In this document: piece by piece, positions 1,143-33,388 of the stretch | How the letters are laid out: each line of letters begins with the position of its first letter | Numbering within the stretch: position 1 is the first letter of the stretch | Source: Verrucomicrobiaceae bacterium | GTDB lineage: Bacteria; Verrucomicrobiota; Verrucomicrobiia; Verrucomicrobiales; Akkermansiaceae | Reading direction: 5' to 3' | NCBI GenBank assembly: GCA_027487355.1 | Contig: JAIYDT010000492.1 | Coordinates: 1 to 33,388 of the forward strand | Length of the DNA stretch: 33,388 nucleotides | The notes under the pieces: model-generated | Seen by the model: only the letters and a program-made list of their open reading frames with translations | Databases searched by the model: none | What the model was told of the DNA's origin: nothing | Program-made: the position numbers and the translations under genes

Positions 1143-1310
1143 ATGCTCGCGATGCTCGATATCTCCAATCCGCTGATCGGCGTGGGCATCGGCCTGCTGC
1201 TGATGGTCTGCATGCTGGTAGCGATCGCCGGGCTGTTGGTCCGAGCGGTGGACCGGACGCAGGGGATCGAAGGGGAGCGCAAAGACCACGACTGCCACGG
1301 CCATGAGTAA
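1143..1310 (+). CDS. 55-aa single-span membrane peptide of the lysis module
   Basis: A complete small frame from ATG (1143) to TAA (1308-1310), overlapping the endolysin start at 1303 by 8 nt. It has one transmembrane helix at ~12-35 (rich in Gly, Leu, Val, Ile), a short charged stretch (RAVDRTQGIEGERK) and a His/Cys-containing tail (DHDCHGHE). Position between a holin-like gene and an endolysin, together with its topology, suggests a class of tiny holin/antiholin or an inner-membrane spanin-like peptide. The start has no SD and lies immediately after the heptad repeat. I do not recognise a family. Confidence 0.6.
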   Translation: MLAMLDISNPLIGVGIGLLLMVCMLVAIAGLLVRAVDRTQGIEGERKDHDCHGHE

Positions 1311-1821
1311 GCTGACCATTCCAGAGGCCGTGGCCCGATTCGCTGAGAGCCGGATCGGAGTCCGCGAAAGCGGCGGAGCCAACAAAGGCGAACGGCTCCA
1401 GGAGTTTTTCGACTCCGACTCCTACGATCCGAATGGGCCGCGTCCTGGTGACGATGGTTACGCCTGGTGCGCAGCATTTGTTTGCTGGGCGGTGTATCAA
1501 GCGGTGCGCGACCGCAAGATCGCCTTCAAACGTCCAACCACTCCCGGTGCCTGGGATTACGAGAGATGGGCACGAGAGCAATCCAAGGGCGTGGACCTTC
1601 GCAAGCCGCATTCTGGAGACATTCGGCGAGGTGACATAGTCGTTTTCGGTTTCTCACACATTGGCATCGCAGTCTCGGATGCCAAGAACGGCATGGTCCG
1701 CACCGTCGAGGGCAACACCAACGCCTCGGGTGGGCGTGAAGGCGATGGAGTTTACGAGAGGATCCGTCCGTTGGTCAGCATCCGCAGCCGGATTCGCTTT
1801 GTGGAAGGAGGAGAGCTGTGA
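1303..1821 (+). CDS. CHAP-domain endolysin
   Basis: A 172-aa cysteine amidase/peptidase expected to cut host peptidoglycan at lysis. The CHAP signature is visible: Cys56 in DGYAWCAAFV as nucleophile, His119 in DIVVFGFSHIGIAV as second catalytic residue, and EGN (136-138) following a short strand as the usual third polar site. The N-terminal ~45 residues (SKLTIPEAVARFAESRIGVRE) form the helix typical of phage CHAP proteins. No signal peptide or cell-wall-binding domain is present, so release depends on the neighbouring holin. The ATG at 1303 overlaps the upstream gene, and the next gene starts at its stop with a strong SD. Function is confident; exact bond specificity is not. Confidence 0.85.
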   Translation: MSKLTIPEAVARFAESRIGVRESGGANKGERLQEFFDSDSYDPNGPRPGDDGYAWCAAFVCWAVYQAVRDRKIAFKRPTTPGAWDYERWAREQSKGVDLRKPHSGDIRRGDIVVFGFSHIGIAVSDAKNGMVRTVEGNTNASGGREGDGVYERIRPLVSIRSRIRFVEGGEL

Positions 1822-5245: not shown

Positions 5246-5412
5246 TCACTCAATTCTCCTGTATGGCGGCGAGCGTCTCTGAGGCGATTTGCAGGGGGGG
5301 TCATGCGAAATGGCTCCATGTGGCCTCAGTCGGCCAGAAAACGCCCTGCGTGGGGTCTGCGGTCAATTCCCGGCGCAATTTTAGGCCTTTCACCAATCCA
5401 ATTTCACTCTGA
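5242..5412 (+). CDS. 56-aa hidden gene between terminase and portal
   Basis: A short frame with strong start evidence. GTG at 5242 overlaps the terminase stop as GTGA, and AAGGAGG (5230-5236) lies 5 nt before it. Its TGA (5410-5412) overlaps the portal ATG as TGATG. The same SD plus GTGA arrangement starts the genes at 1818, 2045 and 3236. The peptide begins MITQFSCMAASV and contains three cysteines, several Arg/His and no transmembrane helix; the composition is not that of a known family. It fills what would otherwise be a 166-bp gap in a tightly packed operon. It may be a true minor protein, or a translation bridge coupling terminase and portal synthesis. Confidence 0.6.
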   Translation: MITQFSCMAASVSEAICRGGHAKWLHVASVGQKTPCVGSAVNSRRNFRPFTNPISL

Positions 5413-7403
5413 TGGCACCCAAAGCTCAAAAGACCCCGGATCCTGTGTTCGGAGCCGACTCAATCAAGTCGGCTCGCCGGGCACGCTACAACCCGCTCCG
5501 GACTCTGACGCCTGAGACCCTGACCAGGGCTCTCGACGCGTTCGAGTATGGTGACCTGCGTGAGTTCGCCTTGTTGGCCGAAGTGGTCGCGGATCGGGAT
5601 GACACCTTGAAATCGGTGAAGCCGAAACGCGAGAAGGCCACGGCCGCCCGCGAGTGGAAGGTGCTGAAGCGGGACAAGTCCCCCGAGGCGGAAAAGCATC
5701 AGGAGATCCTGAAGGCGTTCTGGGACAATGTCCGCGCCGAGAATGCCTATGACCGCAACGAGCGCGGGGGCATGGGACGCCTGATCAAGCAGATGATGAC
5801 CTCCGTCTCGTATCGCTACGCGGTGCATCACATCGTGTGGCGGCCGGAGCCGGGCCGCCTCCGGGCGACGTTCGAGTTCGTGCCACTGTGGTTCTTTGAG
5901 AATCGTGAAGGCCGGCTGCGGTTCATCCGCGATGGCGTCGGCGTGATCGGTGAGGAAATGGACCCGAGCGAGTGGATGGTCACCTATGGCGATGGTCTGA
6001 TGATCGCCTGCCTCATTGATTACCTGGGCAAGAAGTTCTGCACCCAGGACTGGCTGGCATTTTCTGAGAAGTTTTCGATGCCGGGTGTGCTCGGTCGGGT
6101 GAGCGCGGGCAAGGACACGCCAGCCGGGAAGGCAATGAAGTCTGCCGTCGAATCCTTCGGTCAGGATTTCTCCGCCGTGGTCTATGGTGACGACGGCACG
6201 GCCAAGATTGAGCTGATCCAGCCGAATGGTTCACCGACCGCGATGCCGATGCCTGCATTCATCGAGCGGGCCGACCGCAAGATGGCTGCACTCTATCGCG
6301 GAGCCGACCTCAGCTCGATGTCGAGCAAGGACGGCGAGGGCACGGGTGCCAGCCTCCAATCGGACGAGACCGACACGCTGGAAGCCGATGACTGCATGAC
6401 GATCTCTGAGACCTTGCAGGAGGTCGAGCGCGAGGTCATCCGCTGGCACTTCGGTGAAGGGGTGGAACCGCTGGCTTACATCGAGGTGCAGCCGCCGGTG
6501 CGAGTGGACAAGAAGTTCATCCTGGAGGCGGTCACCGCCCTTCAGAAGCTGGGTGTTCGCTTGTCCGTTCAAGAGATTTTGGAAGCTCTTGGCTTTTCCG
6601 AAGCGGATGCCGGTGATGTGGCGCTCGGGGAGACACAAGACATCAAGATTCAAGACTCAAGACAAGATCCTGTGGCGAACGCGGCTCAGCCGGGTGCGAT
6701 GAATGAGCTGATCGACTCTCTCCAGGCGGATCTGCAACCACTGGGCAGGGCTCTCGAAGGTGCCTTGATGGCGGATGATTTCCCAGCGATGCAGACCGCG
6801 CTGCGGATGATCTCCGAACGCATGCCGGAGTTCATGGACTCCCAGTTGCTGGCGGCCGCGATCGGTGATGAGCTGGTGGCGGCTTTCACGGGTGGGGTCA
6901 CTGCGAACGCTTTCGATCCTTCCCAGTCCCGCGACATCCGTGGCCGCTGGTCTGAGGGTGGCGGCGGCGGATCTTCATCCGGAGATTGGAAATCGAACGG
7001 CCTGTTGCCAGGTGCCAAGATCGTGCCGGATGAAGGCCATGCTCCGGTGCCTTCCTACAAGGCGGCGGCGAGGCTGATGCAGGGGGAGACCGTTCTCGAT
7101 GACCGCTCATCCCCTGTGCTCTTCAATGATGAGCTGATGGATCATTGGAGCGACAAACCGCGACAGGAGATCAAGAAGCGTCTCAGTGAGCTGGATGACG
7201 CGGTGGGCGCGGTGAAGAACCCCCACGAAGTTTGGCAGAAGGCCAACCAGACAGTCTATCTCAGGAAATACAGCGGCAACGGCCCTGTGCGTTGGATGGC
7301 TGTGTATGTCCCGAACGGGAAGGGCCGGACCTACTATTCCTCGGATCGAATCAACAAAGCGGACGAATCCTTCAGGCAGGGGAAGCTCCTGCGAACCAGA
7401 TGA
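5412..7403 (+). CDS. Portal protein (Mu gp29/DUF935-like) with C-terminal toxin-like domain
   Basis: A 663-aa protein, about 150 residues longer than a usual Mu-type portal. Residues ~1-480 form the DUF935 portal: arginine-rich N-terminus, KREKATAAREWKVL, MGRLIKQMMTSVSYRYAVHH and the FVPLWFFENREGRLRF barrel. The portal forms the ring for DNA entry and tail docking. At ~507 comes RDIRGRWSEGGGGGSSSG, a Gly/Ser linker of the kind that precedes exchangeable tail domains. Residues ~525-663 resemble phage barnase/EndoU/colicin E5-D/RelE-like (PBECR) nuclease modules: an AVGAVKNPHEVW segment, paired strands VYLRKYSG and WMAVYVPNG, and a terminal YYSSDRINKADESFRQGKLLR. The portal call is firm. The nuclease call is inferred from fold-like pattern and linker. 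Confidence 0.82.
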   Translation: MAPKAQKTPDPVFGADSIKSARRARYNPLRTLTPETLTRALDAFEYGDLREFALLAEVVADRDDTLKSVKPKREKATAAREWKVLKRDKSPEAEKHQEILKAFWDNVRAENAYDRNERGGMGRLIKQMMTSVSYRYAVHHIVWRPEPGRLRATFEFVPLWFFENREGRLRFIRDGVGVIGEEMDPSEWMVTYGDGLMIACLIDYLGKKFCTQDWLAFSEKFSMPGVLGRVSAGKDTPAGKAMKSAVESFGQDFSAVVYGDDGTAKIELIQPNGSPTAMPMPAFIERADRKMAALYRGADLSSMSSKDGEGTGASLQSDETDTLEADDCMTISETLQEVEREVIRWHFGEGVEPLAYIEVQPPVRVDKKFILEAVTALQKLGVRLSVQEILEALGFSEADAGDVALGETQDIKIQDSRQDPVANAAQPGAMNELIDSLQADLQPLGRALEGALMADDFPAMQTALRMISERMPEFMDSQLLAAAIGDELVAAFTGGVTANAFDPSQSRDIRGRWSEGGGGGSSSGDWKSNGLLPGAKIVPDEGHAPVPSYKAAARLMQGETVLDDRSSPVLFNDELMDHWSDKPRQEIKKRLSELDDAVGAVKNPHEVWQKANQTVYLRKYSGNGPVRWMAVYVPNGKGRTYYSSDRINKADESFRQGKLLRTR

Positions 7404-7498
7404 AAAATCGCCGGACCACGGGGAGACCGCCCGTGCGGCGCTAACGGCTGACTTATGAGCGGCTCCTCAGTCAACCAAGCTGTGAATCAACCATTACC

Positions 7499-8632
7499 AT
7501 GAAACCAAATCTCTTCAACTTCCTTTTCCGCCGCCGTGATGTGGCCATCAACTCCGGCAAAGTCCGCGCCATCGGCGTCATTGCAAATGCCGCTGCCCTC
7601 AGCGGTGGCGAGTGGGAATTGATCGCTCCCTACGGCGATTTCCCGACTGCCGACAAAAAGAAGATCCAGCGATTCACCAAGGCTGAGGCCGATCAGATGG
7701 TCGCGACCTTCAACTCAGTCTTCCACAAGCTCGGCACTCTGTTCCGTGGCGTGCCGATCTTCCACGGCCATCCGGACGTCGATCCGAAGAACTGGCCCGA
7801 TGATCGTCGCCTCGGAAAGGTGACCGCTCTCGAAGCCCGTGCAGACGGCCTCTATGGCAAGCCGGAATACAACGCCCTGGGCGAGCAAAACAAGACTGAG
7901 GGCTGGTGGGTCTATCCCTCGCCCGCATGGCTCTTCCCGCGCACGGCCGCCAACGTAATCCAGCCCGACGAGCTGCTGTCCATCGGCCTGGTGAACACGC
8001 CGAACATCCCCGGCTCCGTGCCGTGGTCGCAGAACTCCGGTGAACCGCTGCCGGAGGACGAACCCGAATCTCCCACGTCTGAAACCGACACCATCATGAA
8101 AGAAAAACTGTGTGCCCTCCTGGGCCTCGATCCCGCGACTGCCACCGACGATGAAGTCGTCGCCGCCGTCACCACCATGAAGTCCGACGCTGCCGCGAAA
8201 GCGACGGCTGAGGAGAACGCCCGCCTCGCCACCGATGCAAAGAAGACGGCAGAGACTACTGCCGCCAATTCACGCAAGGTTGGTGCCGATGCGATCGCCG
8301 CCGTTGCCATCAAGGCAGGCAAGCTGACCGAAGCTGACCGCGAGGCCACCGTGAACAGCCTGATCGCTCCGGGTGCGGACATGGTCGCCCTGGCCACTGC
8401 CATCGGTGAAAAGAAGCCGACCCTCAACACCGGCGCGCTCGAAATCGGCGGTCGCAAGGTGGCGATCAGCAACAGCCGGGAACGCGCCGCCGCGATCCAG
8501 GTCGAAGTCAACAGCCGCATGCAGTCAAGGGGCCTGTCCTACGACGATGCTTATCGCTCGGTCGAAACGGATCCGCAGTTCAGCCAGCTCTTCGCGGCGA
8601 TGAAGAAGCCGGGCGAAGAAGGTGCCGAGTGA
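7499..8632 (+). CDS. Mu gpI-like prohead protease with scaffold C-terminus
   Basis: A 377-aa protein combining a protease and a scaffold. Residues ~20-170 resemble the Mu-like protease family: GKVRAIGVIANAAALSGGEWELIAPYG, a FHGHPDVDP motif (possible catalytic His region), and DGLYGKPEYNALGEQ followed by GWWVYPSPAW. Residues ~200-377 are Ala/Lys/Glu-rich, helical and probably coiled coil, fitting an internal scaffold that is cleaved and expelled during capsid maturation. A Pro/Glu/Ser linker (~183-198) separates the halves, and an internal ATG follows it. The ATG at 7499 has a G-poor leader ending ACC and no SD. It sits between portal and capsid genes, as in Mu. Confidence 0.78.
   Translation: MKPNLFNFLFRRRDVAINSGKVRAIGVIANAAALSGGEWELIAPYGDFPTADKKKIQRFTKAEADQMVATFNSVFHKLGTLFRGVPIFHGHPDVDPKNWPDDRRLGKVTALEARADGLYGKPEYNALGEQNKTEGWWVYPSPAWLFPRTAANVIQPDELLSIGLVNTPNIPGSVPWSQNSGEPLPEDEPESPTSETDTIMKEKLCALLGLDPATATDDEVVAAVTTMKSDAAAKATAEENARLATDAKKTAETTAANSRKVGADAIAAVAIKAGKLTEADREATVNSLIAPGADMVALATAIGEKKPTLNTGALEIGGRKVAISNSRERAAAIQVEVNSRMQSRGLSYDDAYRSVETDPQFSQLFAAMKKPGEEGAE
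8096..8632 (+). CDS. Nested in-frame scaffold protein (internal start, Mu Z-like)
   Basis: An in-frame ATG at 8096 (codon 200 of the protease) begins MKEKLCALLGL and would give a 178-aa product containing only the scaffold half. The bases before it (CCGACACCATC) resemble the SD-less, C/A-rich leaders before the true starts at 7499, 9096 and 9646, each followed by ATGAAA. Nested scaffold starts are established in Mu (I/Z) and lambda (C/Nu3). The evidence here is position after the linker and start context; expression cannot be seen from sequence. Confidence 0.5.
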   Translation: MKEKLCALLGLDPATATDDEVVAAVTTMKSDAAAKATAEENARLATDAKKTAETTAANSRKVGADAIAAVAIKAGKLTEADREATVNSLIAPGADMVALATAIGEKKPTLNTGALEIGGRKVAISNSRERAAAIQVEVNSRMQSRGLSYDDAYRSVETDPQFSQLFAAMKKPGEEGAE

Positions 8633-11800: not shown

Positions 11801-11825
11801 GCTGGCGACAGGAATGTCGCCGCTC
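11801..11825 (+). repeat. 25-nt palindromic (REP-like) element, phage copy
   Basis: GGCGACA (11804-11810), loop GGAA, TGTCGCC (11815-11821): a perfect 7-bp hairpin with short conserved flanks. The full 25 nt occur again in reverse orientation at 25815-25839 in host DNA. It fills the gap before the MuF-like gene. A start codon proposed inside it (11814) is therefore unlikely to be used. Confidence 0.8.
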
Positions 11826-11828
11826 CTT

Positions 11829-12836
11829 ATGGCTGATCCGATTCCAGATCCAATTTACGATGCCCTGGTGAAAGCCCAGGAGCGGAAGGCGCTGCCGACG
11901 TCGCTCTCGACGGCGCAGCTCCGCGAGCTGTCGGCTGGGATCAGGGCGCGGGCGATCTTCACCGCGCGAGGTGCGAGCACGCTCTTCGCGGATGCGCTGA
12001 AGCGGATCATTGACGCGATGACCGATGGCGCCATCGACGAGGGCAGTGCAAGGGTGGCCATTCGGGAGACTCTGAAAGCGCTTGATTACACCCCAGAGCG
12101 GGGTTTTCCGGATGTGCCGGAAGGTGAGGTGCCGCCAGCGCTGAAGGGCACCATCGAGGACCTCAGCTCGATGCGCCGGCTGAATCTGATCGTGAACACG
12201 CAGCGCGATCTCTTCGCAGGGGCGGGGCAGCAGATGCGCGGGCACCAGCCCGAGGCGCTTTCCAACTTTCCGGCCTGGGAGCTGATCCGAGTGGGTGAGG
12301 TGACGGTGGCCCGTGACTGGCCTGCACGATGGGCGCTTTCCGGCGGTCAACCGATCCCTGAGAGCTATCCGCAGAACGCGCATCAGAGTCTCGGCAAGAG
12401 CACCGGCATGATTGCCCTGAAGGGTGACCCGGTGTGGGGTGAGCTGGGATCGAGCGCCAATTTCTCGGATGCCTTGGATGTGGATTTCCCTCCGTTTGCG
12501 TTCAACTCGGGGATGGGTTGGCGGCCGGTGCCGATCGAGCGTTGTCTGGAACTCGGAATCACTGGACCGGATGGGCAGTCGATCGAGGAGTTCCACGCTG
12601 GGATCGAACGGCCTCGGGTCATTCTCGGAAGCCTGCCACTGCCCACGCCGCAAGTGTCCCTGAAGGACGTGGATCCGAAGTTGATCGAGGCGTTCAAGAA
12701 GTCCACCGGCGCGAAGCCGGGAGCGGCTCCCAAGGTGGTGAACTACTCGGATATCCTGGAACGTTCCGTGGCCAGAAGCCGGGCGGCCTATGGTGCTGCC
12801 AATCCGGACTACAACCTGGAGGGACCACGCCGATGA
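11829..12836 (+). CDS. MuF-like minor head protein (divergent)
   Basis: A 335-aa protein. The ATG at 11829 is preferred because the in-frame ATG at 11814 lies inside the palindromic repeat. Residues ~10-165 are helical (KAQERKALPTSLSTAQLREL, then IRARAIFTARGASTLFADALKRIID). A beta-rich core follows with AWELIRVGEVTVARDW, GMIALKGDPVWGELG and FPPFAFNSGMGWRPVP. The last segments parallel the DPFW and PPNGWGCRC-type ends of Mu F/phage head morphogenesis proteins, although the usual Cys-X-Cys is missing. Such proteins sit on the portal inside the head. In Mu the F gene directly follows the portal gene; here it lies ~4.4 kb downstream. Family assignment is moderate. Confidence 0.55.
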   Translation: MADPIPDPIYDALVKAQERKALPTSLSTAQLRELSAGIRARAIFTARGASTLFADALKRIIDAMTDGAIDEGSARVAIRETLKALDYTPERGFPDVPEGEVPPALKGTIEDLSSMRRLNLIVNTQRDLFAGAGQQMRGHQPEALSNFPAWELIRVGEVTVARDWPARWALSGGQPIPESYPQNAHQSLGKSTGMIALKGDPVWGELGSSANFSDALDVDFPPFAFNSGMGWRPVPIERCLELGITGPDGQSIEEFHAGIERPRVILGSLPLPTPQVSLKDVDPKLIEAFKKSTGAKPGAAPKVVNYSDILERSVARSRAAYGAANPDYNLEGPRR

Positions 12837-25839: not shown

Positions 25840-26101
25840 AACCTCGCGCAGAAGGCCCAGTCTCATCGCTTGGTCCGGGCCTTCGGCTTCGGATACAGAA
25901 TCCGCTTCTCCGTTTTTCCACAAGCTCGCGGTAAGTCTCTGAAGACAACCTTTCCGTAACCAGCTTCCGGATTGCCGAGGTCACGGAAAACAGTCGTCAT
26001 CCGGAAGAGATCCGCTAGCCTTCAGGCGATTTCGTTTTGTTTGTCCATGTTGACCAGTCGCCGGAAGAGCCGGTGGGCTGGCTGTTCCATTGTTTCCGAT
26101 C
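25840..26101 (+). promoter_or_regulatory. Intergenic region upstream of the giant secreted protein
   Basis: 262 bp without a convincing gene. CTTCCGGAT (25964-25972) and ATCCGGAAG (25999-26007) form a perfect 9-bp inverted repeat 26 nt apart. CCGGAAGAG at 26001-26009 recurs at 26061-26069, exactly 60 bp on. These could be operator sites. No SD precedes the ATG at 26102, and no clear -10/-35 pair was found. Confidence 0.35.
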
Positions 26102-29100
26102 ATGAATGCTCTCAAACCCATCCGCGCCTTTTTGAAGCTTGCCGCCACTTGGCTTTTCCCGGGCCTGGCACTCGCCCAGTACAACTACTTCAATGTTCCG
26201 AGCAATTCGGACTGCATCATGCAGGACTACCGCTCGCCGAACGTGCCCGGAGGGATTTATGATGCGATGCATCAGGATTATGTGAGCAGTTCGGACGGTG
26301 GCTCTGGTTATTTCTACGGCGGGTACACCCACCAGAACAACGGCGGCACCAACACCCTGGTGCAGTATGTCTGCTGGCCCGCGAGCGGTGGTTTCGCCCC
26401 GTATTCGCAGCAGATTCCGACTTTTGCCGGAACCAACATGGTCGGCTACGCCCAGATCGGCGAGGGCAGCAGTTGCGCGATCAAGGGCTACTGGCCGCAG
26501 TTCAGCTCGAACCTCTGGACCCGCGAGGTGGTCCGCTACTGGCAACCGGCGGATGGCACGCCGCACGTCGGCTATCAGGGCATGTGGATGAAGGATCCGA
26601 CGACCGGTTTCTGGCATCATCTTGGCACCTTCATGTATCCCTTCGCCGTCACCGGGGTGAACGGCATGGCCGGCTGGCAGGAGAACTTCGTTGGCTACAC
26701 CGGAGATTACAAGGTCGCCCGGGCCGGCGGCTACTATCACAAAAGCGGGGCCTGGCAGCGCGCCAACCAGATCAGTTTCACCTCGAACGGAAAGACCTAC
26801 TCCACCACGGACGCCACCTATCCGACCAGTTTCGCCCAGTCCGATGTCGGGCCGACGTTCTCGGCCCAATACAACAATCCGAACACCGTCACGCTGGCCG
26901 ACCAGCCCGCCCTGCCGACCTTTGATCCGATCGTGATCAACAGCTCGACCGCCACCGTCAGCGGCTCGCAGCTTCTCGTGCAGTGGCAGATGCCGCTGAC
27001 CAGTTCGCCGCAACTCAGCTACAAGATCGAGGTCTTCAACAACTCCGCCTACACCGGTTCGGCGGCGATCACCTTCACCGACAATGAGCCGGACACCCGA
27101 CAGAAGCTCCTGAACATCTCCGGCGTCGCCACGCCCTATGTGCGGCTGACCATCACCGATATCTTTTATAACAACAGCACGCCAGTCCTCATCACCCCGA
27201 CCACCGCCACCCTCAGTCCGGCGACTTCGGTCTCCGGCGCGGTCGCGGGATTGAACTACAAGTACTACCAGGCCGCCTCCGGCACCTGGACCGTGCTGCC
27301 GGATTTCACCGCTCTTACCGCCACCCGTCAGGGTGCGGTGAACTTCCCGGATGTGACACCGCGGTTGCGGCGCACGAATTATGGGTTCACCTACACCGGT
27401 TACTTCAATGCCGCCACCAGCGGTCTGTATGCGTTCACCCTGCGATCCGGGGATGGCAGTGCGCTGGTCATCGATGGAACGACGGTCATCGACTTCGATG
27501 GCCTGCATGACTCCACCCAGTTCAAGAGCGGTGGCATCGCCCTGGCCGCCGGACCCCACACGCTCACGCTGCGCTATTTCAGGGGAAATCCTCCCGGAGT
27601 GAACACCACCGTTTACAACGACGGCATCGGCCTTTCCTACGAAGGTCCGGGAATCAACGCCGCCGATGTGCCCGCCTCCGCCTTCACGCGGGTGGCCGCC
27701 GGCAGCGAGCCGAGTGTCGCTCTAACAGCTCCGGCCAACAACGCATCGGTGATCAACTCCAGCACCGGCGTCAGTGCCGCGGTCACCGCCAACGGGGCCA
27801 CGATCAACAGCGTCCAGTATTTCCTGACCGACAACTACTCCTACTACCCAAGGCCCAACAAGGCACCGGATTACTTCGTGGGCCAGGATGCCACGGCTCC
27901 CTACGACCTGAGCTCGATGGTCTGGACGTCGGCCAGCAACCCGATCCGCGCCCGCGTGGTTTACAACGGCACGAACACCATCGACTCGCCTGCCATTTCC
28001 ATCACCACCACGAACCCCTCCCTTGGCGACTGGATCTGGAATCCCCTGGAAATGCACAACTATCCATCCGGAGCCAGCGTGCAGGGAAACAAGGTCTCCA
28101 TGATCGGTGACGGCATGAACCTGATGAGTCGTCAGGTCACCGGCGATTGCACCTTGATCGGCCGGCTCGCCGACATCACTCCGAACACTGCCGGGCCCGA
28201 CGGCATTTTACCGGAAGGCGATTGGCGCGGAGGGATCATCCTCCGCAGCAATGCCAACACGACCATCGGCGAGCCACTCGGCAACGGCAGCGGCACCCGA
28301 TTCGTGGCGCTCTTCAGCTCAGTGGACGGCGGCACCTATTTCCAGGACGATTCGATGACCAACGGCAACGGCGATGCCAACCGCTGGTCCTCGAATCTCG
28401 GCGGCAGCAACAAATGGTACAAGATCCAGCGGGTGGGAAACCTGTTCACCAGTTATGTGTCGGCGGACGGCGTAACCTGGAATGCGGTCAACAGCATCAC
28501 CATCGCGAACTTCGGCGCCACGATCCATGCCGGTGTCTTCATCCATGCGGTGCAGTCCTTCAACCCCAACCTCCATCGCGCCAGCTTCGATGGCTTCAGC
28601 CTGACGGGCGCGGCCGTCGTCGGGCCGGCCAGTGTCTCCATCAGTCCGCAATCCACGGCCGTGGTTAAAGGCATGCCGGTCACCTTCTCGGCATCTGTCA
28701 TCGGCCCGGTGCCGACAGGCTATCAATGGAAGTTCAACGGCACCGACATTCCCGGTGCCACATCTTCCACCTACACGATCCCGTCCGTCGCCGCCGCGAA
28801 TGCCGGCAGCTACTCGGTCGTGGCCAATGCCGTGACCAGCTCCGCCGCGGACCTGACGATCAGCACTCCGCCTGGATCCGGTGTGTGGACCAATGCCGCC
28901 GGCGGACCCTGGACAACGACCGGAAACTGGAGCGGCAACTCCATCGCCAGTGGCACGGATGCGGTGGCCGATTTCAGCACCCTGAGCTTCACGGCCAATG
29001 CCGCCGTCACCCTCAATGGTGCGAGGACCGTTGGCGCGATGGTGTTTGATGACCTCGATGCCACGAAGAACACTTGGACGGTCAGCCAGAATACCAGCGG

Positions 29101-32100
29101 ATCCCTGACCCTCGCCACGAGCAGCGGAACGCCCGCGATCTCGACCAATGTTCCCACCACGATCAGTGCGGTGGTCGCCGGAACCCAGGGGATGTTCAAG
29201 AATGGAACGGGAGCGCTGACGCTTTCCGGAGCAAGCACGATTACCGGAACCGTGCAGGTGACGGGAGGCACCCTGGAGGTCTCCAACAAATCCGGCGACT
29301 GTCCCTACAGCGTGAGTTCTGGGGCGACCCTCAAGATCGGCTACAACACCGGTGGTGGATACGCGAACACCAACCTGGTGATCAACGGCGACGGGGTGGC
29401 GGCGACCACGGGCTTCTACCTCGCGGGTGGAAGGACCTACAATGCCAGCGGCCAGATCATCCTCCAGGCCGCGCCGACGACGATCCGTCAATACGGCAGC
29501 GGACTGGCAAAGATCGGCACCTTTGATGTCAACGGCAACGGGCTCTGGTGCACCGCCAACGCCTCGGGTTCCGTCATCGATGCCAACGTCCAGATCGTCA
29601 GTTCGGGATTCGGCATGTCGATGGACATCGATCCCGGTGCAAGCACGCTGACCGGTGACCTCACGATCAACGGATCCCTGAACATCGGAAGCCTTGGCTT
29701 TTACAAGCGTGGACCCGGTTCCGTCCTCTTGAAAGGCGCGGCAACCACCAGCAACACGGCTGTCAGGGCGCTGGAAGGATCCGTGCTCTGCGGAGCCACC
29801 AACTGCCTGGGAACCGCGGCCGCAGTCCCGGTCTCCTCCGGTGCGAAGCTTTCCTTGAACGGCTACAGCCAGACCGTGGCCTCGGTCACCGGTTCGGCGG
29901 GCGGAACGATCTCGTTCGATGGCGCGAACACCCTCACCGCCACCACGGCGACCCTCGGCGGAGCCTTGCAGATGACGGTCAACAAAGGCGCAACGCCAAG
30001 CAGCAGTCGTCTGGTCAGCACCAATGCCCTCGCGTATGCGGGAACACTTTCGATTGCAATCCAAGGGGCCACTCCCCTCGCTCAGGGCGACTCCTTCCAG
30101 CTCTTCAGCGCCCCGAGTTACAGCGGATCATTCACCAGCATCGCCCTGCCCAATCTGCCGGTTGGTCTCGCGTGGGACACCAGCGCGATCGCCACCACCG
30201 GGTCGATCAGCATCATTTCCGCAGGAAACAGCCAGTGGAATGGTGGCGGAGCGGACACCAACTGGAGCAGCGCCCTGAACTGGAATGGGGTGGCACCCGC
30301 CAACAACCAGGTGCTGACCTTTGCCGGAACCACCCGTCCGACTTCGGTCAACAACCTCCTGACCTCCGTGGGCCGGATTGTGTTCAGCAACGGCGGCTTC
30401 TCGCTCTCTGGCACGGCGGTCACGCTTCAATGGGGCATCGTCCACCAGGCGGGAAACAACACCTGGGGAGTGCCCACGACATTGCTCGCCCCGCAGTCCT
30501 ATACCAGCGACGCAGGCACCCTGACCATCAGCGGAACCACCGCGAACGGCGGATTCGATCTCACCCTGGATGGAGCAGGAAATCATACGGTCTCGGGCGT
30601 GATCTCGGGCACGGGCGGTCTGGTGAAAAGCGGCACCGGCACGGCGGCGCTCTCCGCCAAGAACACCTACACCGGCCTCACCACGATCAACGGCGGCGTC
30701 CTCAATCTAACAGGCAATGGCGGCAGCACCGGCACCATCCGCGGCACCGCCACCGTCAACTCCGGAGGAACCCTTCGTCTCAGCACCGGTGACGCCACCG
30801 GCTACAGCGGGGGATCCGCGGCGCTGACCGTGATCAATCTAACAGGTGGCACGCTCAACGTGAACACCACCTCCAACCAGACGCTCGGCAGCGCCGTCAT
30901 CAACATGACCGGCGGCACCATCAGCGGACTCAGTGGCGGCAACATCGACTTCTTCGGCGGCGGTTCGGCCCTCAACACCTTCGCCTCCAGCACCACCTCG
31001 GTCATCAGCGGCGTCCAGCTTTCGCCCCTGCGCCAGGGCAGCACGACCTTCAACGTGGCCGCCGGGACCACGGCCTCGGGCATTGATCTCGACATCTCCT
31101 CCGTCCTGAAAGGCGCTGCCGCCGGCGATGCGGTCGGGGGCGTGCTGTTCAAGGATGGAGCCGGAACGATGAGGCTTTCCGGTGCCAATACCTACGCGCG
31201 GGCCACGACGGTCAGCGCCGGAACCCTTCTCGTGAACGGATCACTCGCGGCGGGCAGCACGGTGACGGTCTCGACGGGCGCGACGTTGGGCGGAAGCGGC
31301 ACGATCAATGGGCCCACCACCGTGTCCAGCGGCGGAGTCATCGCCCCGGGAAGCCTCGGACTGGGCACCCTGACCCTCAACAACACGCTTTCTCTTTCCG
31401 GAACAGCAAGGATGGAGATCGGCAAGACCGGCCCGACTCTGACCACCGACCGGATCAGCGGACTGACCACCGTGACCTACGGGGGAACCCTTGAGGTAAC
31501 GAAAACCGGAACCACCGATCTGGTGGCGGGGGATTCGTTCCAGTTGTTCAGCGCGACCACCCGCACGGGTTCCTTTTCAACCATCAGTCTCCCGGTTCTG
31601 ACCACAGGGCTGGTCTGGGACACCACCGCGCTTTCCACCACCGGAACCATCGTGGTGGCAAAGGGCCCCCAGACCATCAGCTTTGATGCCCTCGCCGGGA
31701 AAACGTTTGGCGATGCGGCTTTCATCCTGACCGCCACGGCCAGCTCCGGACTTCCCGTTAGCTATTCGAGTTCCAACACCTCGGTCGCCACGGTTTCTGG
31801 AAGTACGGTGACAATCGTAGGTGCGGGCTCGACGACGATCACCGCCTCGCAGTCGGGCAATGCAAGTTACCTGGCCGCCACAAGTGTCCTGCAGACCCTC
31901 ACGGTCGGGAAGGCCGCGCAGACCATCAGTTTCGGAATCCTGGCGGCAAAGACCTTCGGGAATGCGGCCTTCAGCCTCACTGGGACCTCAAGCTCCGGTC
32001 TTTCCGTCAGCTATTCGAGTTCGAACACGGCCGTCGCAACCGTTTCCGGCAGCACCGTGACCATCGTCGGTGCCGGTTCGACCACGATCACCGCCTCCCA

Positions 32101-33388
32101 ATCCGGCACCACCAACTACCTCGCGGCGACGAGTGTTCCCCAGACGCTCAGCGTGGGACAGGCATCCCAGACGATCACCTTCGGAACCCTCGTATCGAAG
32201 ACCTTTGGCGACGCCACGTTCAGTCTCGGCGCGACGACGACCTCCGCTCTGCCAATCACCTATGTGAGCTCGAATCCTGCGGTCGCGACGATTTCGGGAA
32301 ATACGGTAACTCTCGTAAGTGCGGGCTCGACCACCATTACCGCCTCACAGCCCGGCAACACCAACTACCTCGCGGCGACGAGCGTGCCACAAACCCTGAC
32401 CGTCAATCAGGCGTCGCAGACGATCAGTTTCAGCGTCCTGGCCTCAAAGACCTACGGCGATACCTCCTTCAGCCTTGGTGCCAACGCCAGTTCAGGTTTG
32501 CCCGTCAGCTACGCGAGTTCCAACACAAGCGTCGCAACTGTTTCCGGAAGTACGGTGACCATCGTCGGTGCGGGCTCGACCACGATCACCGCCTCACAGC
32601 CCGGCAACACCAATTACCTCGCGGCAACCGGTGTTCCTCAGACGCTGACGGTCGGTCAGGCCTCGCAGATCATCACCTTCGGGACGCTCGCTTCAAAGAA
32701 CTTCGGCGATGCCGCCTTCAGCCTTGGAGCAACCTCGACCTCTGCACTGACAATCTCCTATGCCAGCTCAGACCCGACAGTTGCCACGGTCATCGGCAAC
32801 ACCGTCACGATCGTCGGCGCAGGCTCAACGACCCTCACCGCCTCACAGCCCGGCAACACCAACTACCTCGCGGCGACGAGTGTTCCCCAGACGCTCAGCG
32901 TGGGACAGGCATCCCAGACGATCAGCTTCGGCGTCCTGGCCTCAAAGACCTACGGCGATACTTCCTTCAGCCTTGGTGCCACCGCCAGTTCTGGTTTGCC
33001 CGTCAGCTACGCGAGCTCCAACACCAGTGTCGCAACCGTTTCCGGAAGTACGGTGACCATCGTCGGTGCCGGTTCGACCACCCTCACCGCCTCACAGCCC
33101 GGCAACACCAATTACCTCGCAGCAGCAAGCGTCCCACAAACTCTAACGGTAAATCCGGCAAGCGCCCAGGTAAGTCTCGGCGATCTCACCTCCAACTACG
33201 ATGGAAGCGCCAAACCGGTGTCCGTCACCACCACTCCGGCCGGTCTGTCCGTAGAGGTGACCTACAATGGGTCTTCAACCGTTCCGATCAATCCAGGCAC
33301 CTATGCAGTGAACGCCGTGGTCACCGATCCAAATTACACAGGCAGTTCTTCCGACACCCTGGTGATCGTCAATGTCCTCACCGTGGTC
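26102..33388 (+). CDS. Giant secreted multidomain protein (PATR repeats, tandem 83-aa repeats), incomplete at window edge
   Basis: An uninterrupted frame of 2429 codons that runs off the window. Residues 1-25 are a signal peptide (cleavage after ALA, before QYNYF). Order: ~26-300 resembles DUF3472 ([11 protein letters not shown]); ~420-515 PA14-like ([20 protein letters not shown]); ~533-636 Ig-like; ~640-836 LamG/DUF1349-like (GDWIWNPLE); ~840-922 Ig-like with [14 protein letters not shown]; ~923-1853 beta-helix with PATR units such as [17 protein letters not shown] and [18 protein letters not shown]; 1857-2354 six 83-aa repeats; then an MBG-like domain ([11 protein letters not shown]). It is probably cell-surface or exported, with a sorting signal or autotransporter barrel beyond the window. 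PA14 and DUF3472 hint at glycan binding. Substrate unknown. Confidence 0.92.
31670..33163 (+). repeat. Six tandem 249-bp (83-aa) repeats in the giant protein gene
   Basis: Repeat starts at 31670, 31919, 32168, 32417, 32666 and 32915, every step exactly 249 bp. Each encodes QTISF or a close variant, a variable middle, an SSN/SSD-VAT turn, a G-STTxTASQ strand and a YLAA end. Units 3 and 5 share one variant (TSALxIxY) and units 4 and 6 another ([22 protein letters not shown]). Stretches near 32119-32175 and 32866-32922 are almost identical at DNA level. Confidence 0.9.

What the first reader, a model, noticed from the sequence alone, without database searches (positions are those of the whole stretch)
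5412..7403. Portal protein ending in a toxin-like (PBECR-type) nuclease module
The chain is ~150 aa longer than a Mu-type portal. The extra part follows a Gly/Ser linker (RDIRGRWSEGGGGGSSSG) like those before polymorphic toxin domains. Its last ~140 aa have the short NPHEVW segment and strand pattern of barnase/EndoU/RelE-like phage nucleases. Known MuF toxin systems put the toxin on the minor head protein; here it is on the portal, and the MuF-like protein (11829-12836) carries none. No dedicated antitoxin gene follows directly. A nuclease delivered with the DNA is an attractive idea.
Basis: partly seen in the sequence, partly recalled or inferred. Interest (0 to 1): 0.72.

Follow-up and report, generated by a model that had tools for sequence, protein, structure and literature searches.

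The report
Swappable nuclease tail on phage portal
A phage of an Akkermansia-family bacterium carries a probable RNA-cutting toxin on the end of its portal, the ring through which DNA enters and leaves the head; related phages swap this tail for other nucleases or lack it, and a conserved hairpin, not a protective gene, follows it.

Summary
ORF 5412-7403 (663 aa) is a Mu-type portal (Portal_Mu, E 7.5e-51), 151 aa longer than Mu gp29. Its tail (residues 525-663) is a PBECR2-type nuclease domain. Alone it scores weakly (E 5e-4, below Pfam's cut-off), but 11 of 12 aligned sequences hit PBECR2 (best 5e-12). Active-site His578 and Thr640 are present. A good model (pLDDT 85) most resembles RNase toxins, at low Z.

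The tail is swappable cargo. Portals of the same lineage end bare, or carry PBECR1 or PBECR3. PBECR2 also sits on other Akkermansia portals and, in a viral contig, on a homologue of this window's MuF-like protein. Portal-PBECR fusions were already reported (Iyer 2017), so the architecture is not new. In Mu the portal's last 124 residues are missing from the virion, probably cut by the maturation protease; the equivalent piece here carries the toxin.

No immunity gene follows. Instead, 43 nt after the stop, lies a covarying 31-nt hairpin. It recurs after 8 of 24 PBECR2 domains (shuffled mean 0.09), is absent from Rfam, and is the model's only hit in 145 related genomes. An RNA control element replacing an immunity protein is possible but unproven.

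The parts
5412..7403 (+). portal-toxin fusion gene, 663 aa
5577..6593 (+). Mu-type portal domain (residues 56-394)
   Evidence: Pfam Portal_Mu PF06074, E 7.5e-51; up to 50-55% identical portal bodies in relatives
6594..6923 (+). portal C-terminal region (residues 395-504), equivalent to the part of Mu gp29 that is missing from the virion; bare relatives end about here
   Evidence: alignment to Mu gp29, Mu 388 = residue 381; PMC11915804
6930..6983 (+). Gly/Ser linker (residues 507-524), where bare and toxin-bearing portals diverge
6984..7400 (+). PBECR2-type nuclease domain (residues 525-663)
   Evidence: Pfam PF18810; alignments A1 and A6; AlphaFold model
7143..7145 (+). predicted catalytic His578, invariant in 12 aligned sequences
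7329..7331 (+). predicted catalytic Thr640, in the fourth strand (119-123) of the main sheet; Ser or Thr in 11 of 12 sequences
7409..7440 (+). first hairpin after the stop (11-bp stem with a 3-nt bulge), almost unchanged in the remnant of genome G038
7446..7476 (+). conserved 31-nt hairpin: 8-bp stem (one mismatch here), UAU bulge, 3-bp stem, 6-nt loop
7499..8632 (+). Mu I-like head maturation protease, proposed to cut the portal tail
   Evidence: Pfam Mu-like_Pro PF10123, E 4.5e-15
11814..12836 (+). MuF-like minor head protein without a toxin; its homologue in viral contig L066/L067 carries PBECR2

Best explanation
The end of the portal is a cargo slot holding an interchangeable metal-independent RNase of the PBECR2 family. 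Shown here by sequence: homology of the tail to PBECR2, an intact His/Thr active-site pair, a model that most resembles RNase toxins, and tail swapping among relatives. Inferred: the portal is built into the prohead with the tail on the inside; the maturation protease encoded next door cuts off the portal C-terminus, as proposed for Mu gp29; the freed nuclease is packed with the DNA, enters the next cell on infection, and cleaves host or competitor RNA, or RNA of a defence system. Because it is made late and bound to the portal, the producing cell may need no immunity protein. The conserved hairpin after the gene belongs to the same cassette and may control it.
For: Family: tail hits PBECR2, 11 of the 12 aligned sequences hit it, invariant G, H, R, L, P, E, W, R, G columns including His578. 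Fold: model pLDDT 85.2, pTM 0.81, with Thr640 in the fourth strand; the four best structural matches are all bacterial RNase or CDI toxins, and the best viral matches are mostly large polyvalent phage proteins with Foldseek probability 0.84-1.00. Swapping: portals with about 33-55% identical bodies carry PBECR1 (L006), PBECR3 (L008, L014; L024 weaker) or no tail (L007, L010, L012, L013, L015, L019). PBECR2 sits on other portal lineages (L003, L122, L040) and on a Phage_min_cap2 protein (L034). It also sits on L066, whose N-terminus is 29% identical (E 3e-24) to the window's MuF-like protein. Release: Mu gp29 lacks its last 124 residues in the virion, read as protease I cleavage (PMC11915804); Mu 388 aligns with residue 381, so the tail lies on the removed piece, and the protease gene is adjacent.
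Against: Nuclease activity, cleavage of this portal, packaging and delivery are all untested. The tail alone is below Pfam's cut-off. Structural Z scores (3.4-4.5) are in the range that can mean only a common arrangement. The missing 124 residues in Mu could partly be disorder. No immunity gene was found although MuF toxins usually have a small ORF downstream.
Confidence: 0.6

Rival explanations
1. The PBECR2 domain works inside the virion-producing cell, not after injection: once cut from the portal it trims host or phage RNA late in infection, or binds RNA or DNA during packaging, as suggested for the inactive PBECR domain of Mu gp30.
For: No immunity gene is needed in a cell about to lyse. 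Iyer and colleagues allow host or phage mRNA as targets and an RNA-binding role for Mu gp30.
Against: Swapping of different PBECR families on the same portal lineage and movement of PBECR2 among several head proteins look like an arms race over a delivered effector rather than a fixed structural job.
Confidence: 0.25
2. The tail is a decayed or inactive toxin kept as a structural extension.
For: Some toxin relatives are clearly remnants (G038).
Against: The frame is open and all columns that are invariant in 12 sequences are kept, including His578; Thr640 is kept too.
Confidence: 0.1
3. The hairpin at 7446-7476 is an ordinary operon element (RNA processing or termination) that sits in this intergenic gap whatever the portal tail is.
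For: It lies between portal and protease genes of one operon; other gaps are also somewhat structured.
Against: No T run follows. The model does not hit the gaps after bare portals or after PBECR1 and PBECR3 portals. It is the model's only hit in 145 related genomes. It also follows PBECR2 on other portals, and is even found inside a longer reading frame (L078).
Confidence: 0.2

Closest known systems
Portal-PBECR and MuF-PBECR fusions (Iyer, Burroughs, Anand, de Souza, Aravind 2017, PMC5512222)
   Same: PBECR nuclease domain fused directly to a portal; [quoted passage not shown] proposed to be packaged and injected.
   Different: Here the tail is shown to vary on one portal lineage, and a conserved 3' hairpin is linked to the PBECR2 type. 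In the passages read, the paper reports the fusion but not these two points.
MuF polymorphic toxins of temperate phages (Jamet 2017, PMC5576092; Bxa, PMC11699363)
   Same: Variable C-terminal toxin on a conserved head protein, predicted delivery with phage DNA.
   Different: The carrier is the portal, the MuF-like protein is bare, and no small immunity ORF follows.
Phage Mu portal gp29 and protease I (PMC11915804; Grimaud 1996)
   Same: Same portal family, protease gene in the head operon, C-terminal part of the portal missing from the virion.
   Different: Mu gp29 has no toxin tail.
Type III toxin-antitoxin systems (ToxIN, CptIN)
   Same: An RNase toxin gene with an adjacent structured RNA and no protein antitoxin.
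   Different: From general knowledge, type III antitoxins are tandem repeats upstream of the toxin; here a single hairpin lies downstream, on a virion protein gene, and neutralisation is untested.

Membership tests
PBECR2 (Pfam PF18810, BECR superfamily) | sequence homology to the family | tested here: met
   E 5e-4 for the isolated tail, below the curated cut-off (20.7 against 27.1 bits); 11 of the 12 sequences of its alignment hit PBECR2, best 5.3e-12; relatives L003, L122, L066, L034 are above the cut-off
PBECR2 (Pfam PF18810, BECR superfamily) | histidine in or at the N-terminal helix | tested here: met
   His578 invariant in 12 sequences, one residue after the short helix 53-56 of the model
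PBECR2 (Pfam PF18810, BECR superfamily) | Ser/Thr in strand 4 | tested here: met
   Thr640 at the start of strand 119-123, the fourth of the main sheet; Ser/Thr in 11 of 12
PBECR2 (Pfam PF18810, BECR superfamily) | BECR fold (N-terminal helix, then four or five strands) | tested here: inconclusive
   helix-strand order fits; the best matches are RNase toxins, but only at Z 3.4-4.5
PBECR2 (Pfam PF18810, BECR superfamily) | endoribonuclease activity | not testable with these tools
   needs an assay
Mu-type portal (Pfam PF06074) | portal domain and place in a head operon | tested here: met
   E 7.5e-51, followed by a Mu I-like protease
MuF polymorphic toxin | N-terminal MuF domain | tested here: not met
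   the carrier is Portal_Mu
MuF polymorphic toxin | small immunity ORF directly downstream | tested here: not met
   95-nt gap, no credible ORF
Polymorphic toxin (general) | conserved N-terminal part with variable C-terminal toxins among relatives | tested here: met
   PBECR1, PBECR2, PBECR3 or nothing on related portals
Polymorphic toxin (general) | delivery into another cell | not testable with these tools
   needs virion and infection experiments
Type III toxin-antitoxin system | RNA antitoxin of tandem repeats upstream of the toxin | tested here: not met
   the model's only window hit is a single hairpin downstream
Type III toxin-antitoxin system | the RNA neutralises the toxin | not testable with these tools
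   needs co-expression

The most novel reading that the evidence does not exclude
The hairpin after PBECR2 genes is an RNA that holds this class of virion-packaged RNase in check in the producing cell (a decoy, an antitoxin, or a cleavage site in its own mRNA), and takes the place of the missing immunity protein.
Probability: 0.15. Interest if true: 0.82.

Novelty: new variant of a known kind. Interest (0 to 1): 0.52.

Why it matters
It shows that the toxin slot of phage heads is not tied to MuF: one nuclease family moves between portal, MuF-like and other head proteins, and one portal lineage swaps nuclease families. The Mu precedent gives a concrete, testable route (protease release into the head, then injection). 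The conserved hairpin, if it controls the nuclease, would answer how a phage makes a virion-borne RNase without an immunity gene.

Tried and rejected
PHROGs, NCBIfam and PDB sequence searches of the tail gave nothing useful. Phage records hold no homologue of the tail. A first model from four sequences was too poor to use (pLDDT 39); the second, from five more diverse sequences, is used. Foldseek against PDB gave no match below E 0.001. A protein antitoxin between portal and protease: no credible ORF. Rfam: nothing convincing. An integron attC site for the 3' element: considered and rejected by reading the sequence, as no GTTRRRY end follows in the window. Unusual folding energy as evidence for structure: z-scores of the gaps are mostly modest, so covariation and genome-wide specificity are used instead. 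The 7 hairpins used to build the model were picked for good pairing, so their pair counts are biased upward; the shuffle test, whose descriptor was also fitted to these cases, and the genome searches are the fairer controls.

Full report
What is there. The window is a whole 33,388-base contig of a 4.97-Mb draft genome. The ORF at 5412-7403 encodes 663 aa. Pfam finds a Mu-type portal at 56-394 (E 7.5e-51) and a weak PBECR2 match at 559-659. The next gene (7499-8632) is a Mu I-like head protease, and a MuF-like protein without any toxin lies at 11814-12836.

The tail is a PBECR2 nuclease domain. Alone it scores 20.7 bits, below the curated 27.1. Its relatives settle the matter: 11 of the 12 aligned sequences hit PBECR2, best E 5.3e-12, and no other family. 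Columns invariant in all 12 include His578, Arg590, Pro604, Glu606 and Trp608 of the NPHEVW segment, Arg655 and Gly657. Thr640 is Ser or Thr in 11 of 12. [quoted passage not shown] both are here. With five diverse sequences AlphaFold gave pLDDT 85 and pTM 0.81. The four best re-aligned PDB chains are two CDI toxins, BrnT and a sequence-specific ribonuclease domain, at Z 3.4-4.5. That agrees with the family but would not prove the fold alone. In the viral library the best hits are mostly large polyvalent phage proteins.

The tail is cargo. Close relatives were found in the same genus and order. L007, L010, L012, L013, L015 and L019 end about where the linker would begin. L006 carries PBECR1 (37.4 bits) and L008 and L014 carry PBECR3 (39 bits), all above cut-off; L024 is a weaker PBECR3; L005 and L011 have unassigned tails. 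Bodies in this set are about 33-55% identical to the window's. PBECR2 itself occurs on other Akkermansia portals (L003, L122, L040), on a Phage_min_cap2 protein (L034), on MuF-like proteins and in polyvalent proteins. The clearest case is viral contig L066/L067: its MuF-like protein is homologous to the window's bare one (29%, E 3e-24) and ends in PBECR2 (36 bits). The same toxin family thus sits on the portal in one phage and on the MuF-like protein in another.

The joint. Toxin-bearing portals share short linkers that recur before different toxins: GNxxGARKGWETRRxNGW in L005, L011 and L014, GTSEGARKGWDKRGRG in the other lineage L003, GHPFRGNQHxG in L006 and L008. A search with L122-like sequence found nearly the same linker before a RelA/SpoT domain (E 3.4e-19) in large phage contigs L125-L127. 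The window's own linker (RDIRGRWSEGGGGGSSSG) is of a different type.

How it probably works. In the cryo-EM structure of phage Mu the last 124 residues of the 512-aa portal gp29 are absent, which the authors read as cleavage by protease I, citing Grimaud 1996. Mu residue 388 aligns with residue 381 here, so everything after that, including the nuclease, lies on the piece that would be removed. The simplest inferred route is: the tail sits inside the prohead, the adjacent protease frees it, and it leaves with the DNA. The target is unknown; host or phage mRNA and CRISPR RNAs have been suggested for PBECR domains.

No immunity gene, but a hairpin. The gap to the protease gene is 95 nt; toxin-bearing portals mostly have gaps of about 76-120 nt, bare ones -24 to +55 nt. 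In the window the gap holds a hairpin at 7446-7476. The same design (8-bp stem, 3-nt bulge, 3-bp stem, 6-nt loop) occurs about 19-45 nt after 8 of 24 PBECR2 domains, with mostly different stem sequences. Dinucleotide shuffles of the same regions gave a mean of 0.09 and a maximum of 2 in 300 trials. All eight stem pairs change on both sides, with the caveat that instances were selected for pairing. A covariance model hits only the window's copy in 145 related genomes. In 76 Akkermansia genomes it has 11 hits. Six are model members or their near-copies beside PBECR2 domains, and one (L114) follows a PBECR2 end not used in the model. Three (L106, L113, L115) are orphan copies, which share a 68-nt core homologous to the sequence just after the stop codon of L095; one (L116) is at a phage gene end. 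The model also finds L097, which was not used to build it, and L123, a close relative of L003. It has no hit near PBECR1 or PBECR3 portals. In polyvalent gene L078 the hairpin lies inside the reading frame, 36 nt after the PBECR2 domain. The element therefore appears to travel with the PBECR2 cassette. Whether it acts as RNA (regulator, antitoxin, target) or as DNA (recombination site) is open.

Compared with what is known. Fusions of PBECR to portals were reported in 2017, and MuF polymorphic toxins are well described. So the headline of the finding is a known architecture. What goes beyond the passages read is the direct demonstration of tail swapping on a portal lineage, the match between the toxin's place and the cleaved part of the Mu portal, and the linked hairpin.

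Noticed in passing
L054:4160-4410 (genome G038, contig C83, same genus): At one end of a long CRISPR array (61-nt period) lies a roughly 200-nt stretch homologous to the last 26 codons of the window's toxin and the non-coding gap after it. The first hairpin is nearly identical, more conserved than the coding part. It could be an aberrant long spacer or an inserted phage fragment.
   Followed up: partly
L106, L113, L115 around position 1501 (371 in L113): Orphan copies of a 68-nt element, homologous to the sequence just after the PBECR2 stop codon of L095, sit in Akkermansia contigs without a toxin gene; they may be remnants or a mobile element.
   Followed up: partly
L125-L127:2001-2045: The portal linker GT(S/P)EGA(K/R)KGWD(K/T)RGRG also precedes a RelA/SpoT domain in large phage contigs, so it may be a general toxin joint, perhaps a cleavage or packaging signal.
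   Followed up: partly
window 1303-1821: Small ORF with a CHAP amidase/peptidase domain (E 4.6e-8), a likely endolysin.
   Followed up: no
L045 and L030 (genome G219, contig C10): Two PBECR2 genes in tandem: one is the end of a MuF-type protein, the next a solo domain, each with its own structured 3' sequence.
   Followed up: no
window 26090-33388: Open frame of at least 2433 aa that runs off the contig end, probably a giant tail protein.
   Followed up: no
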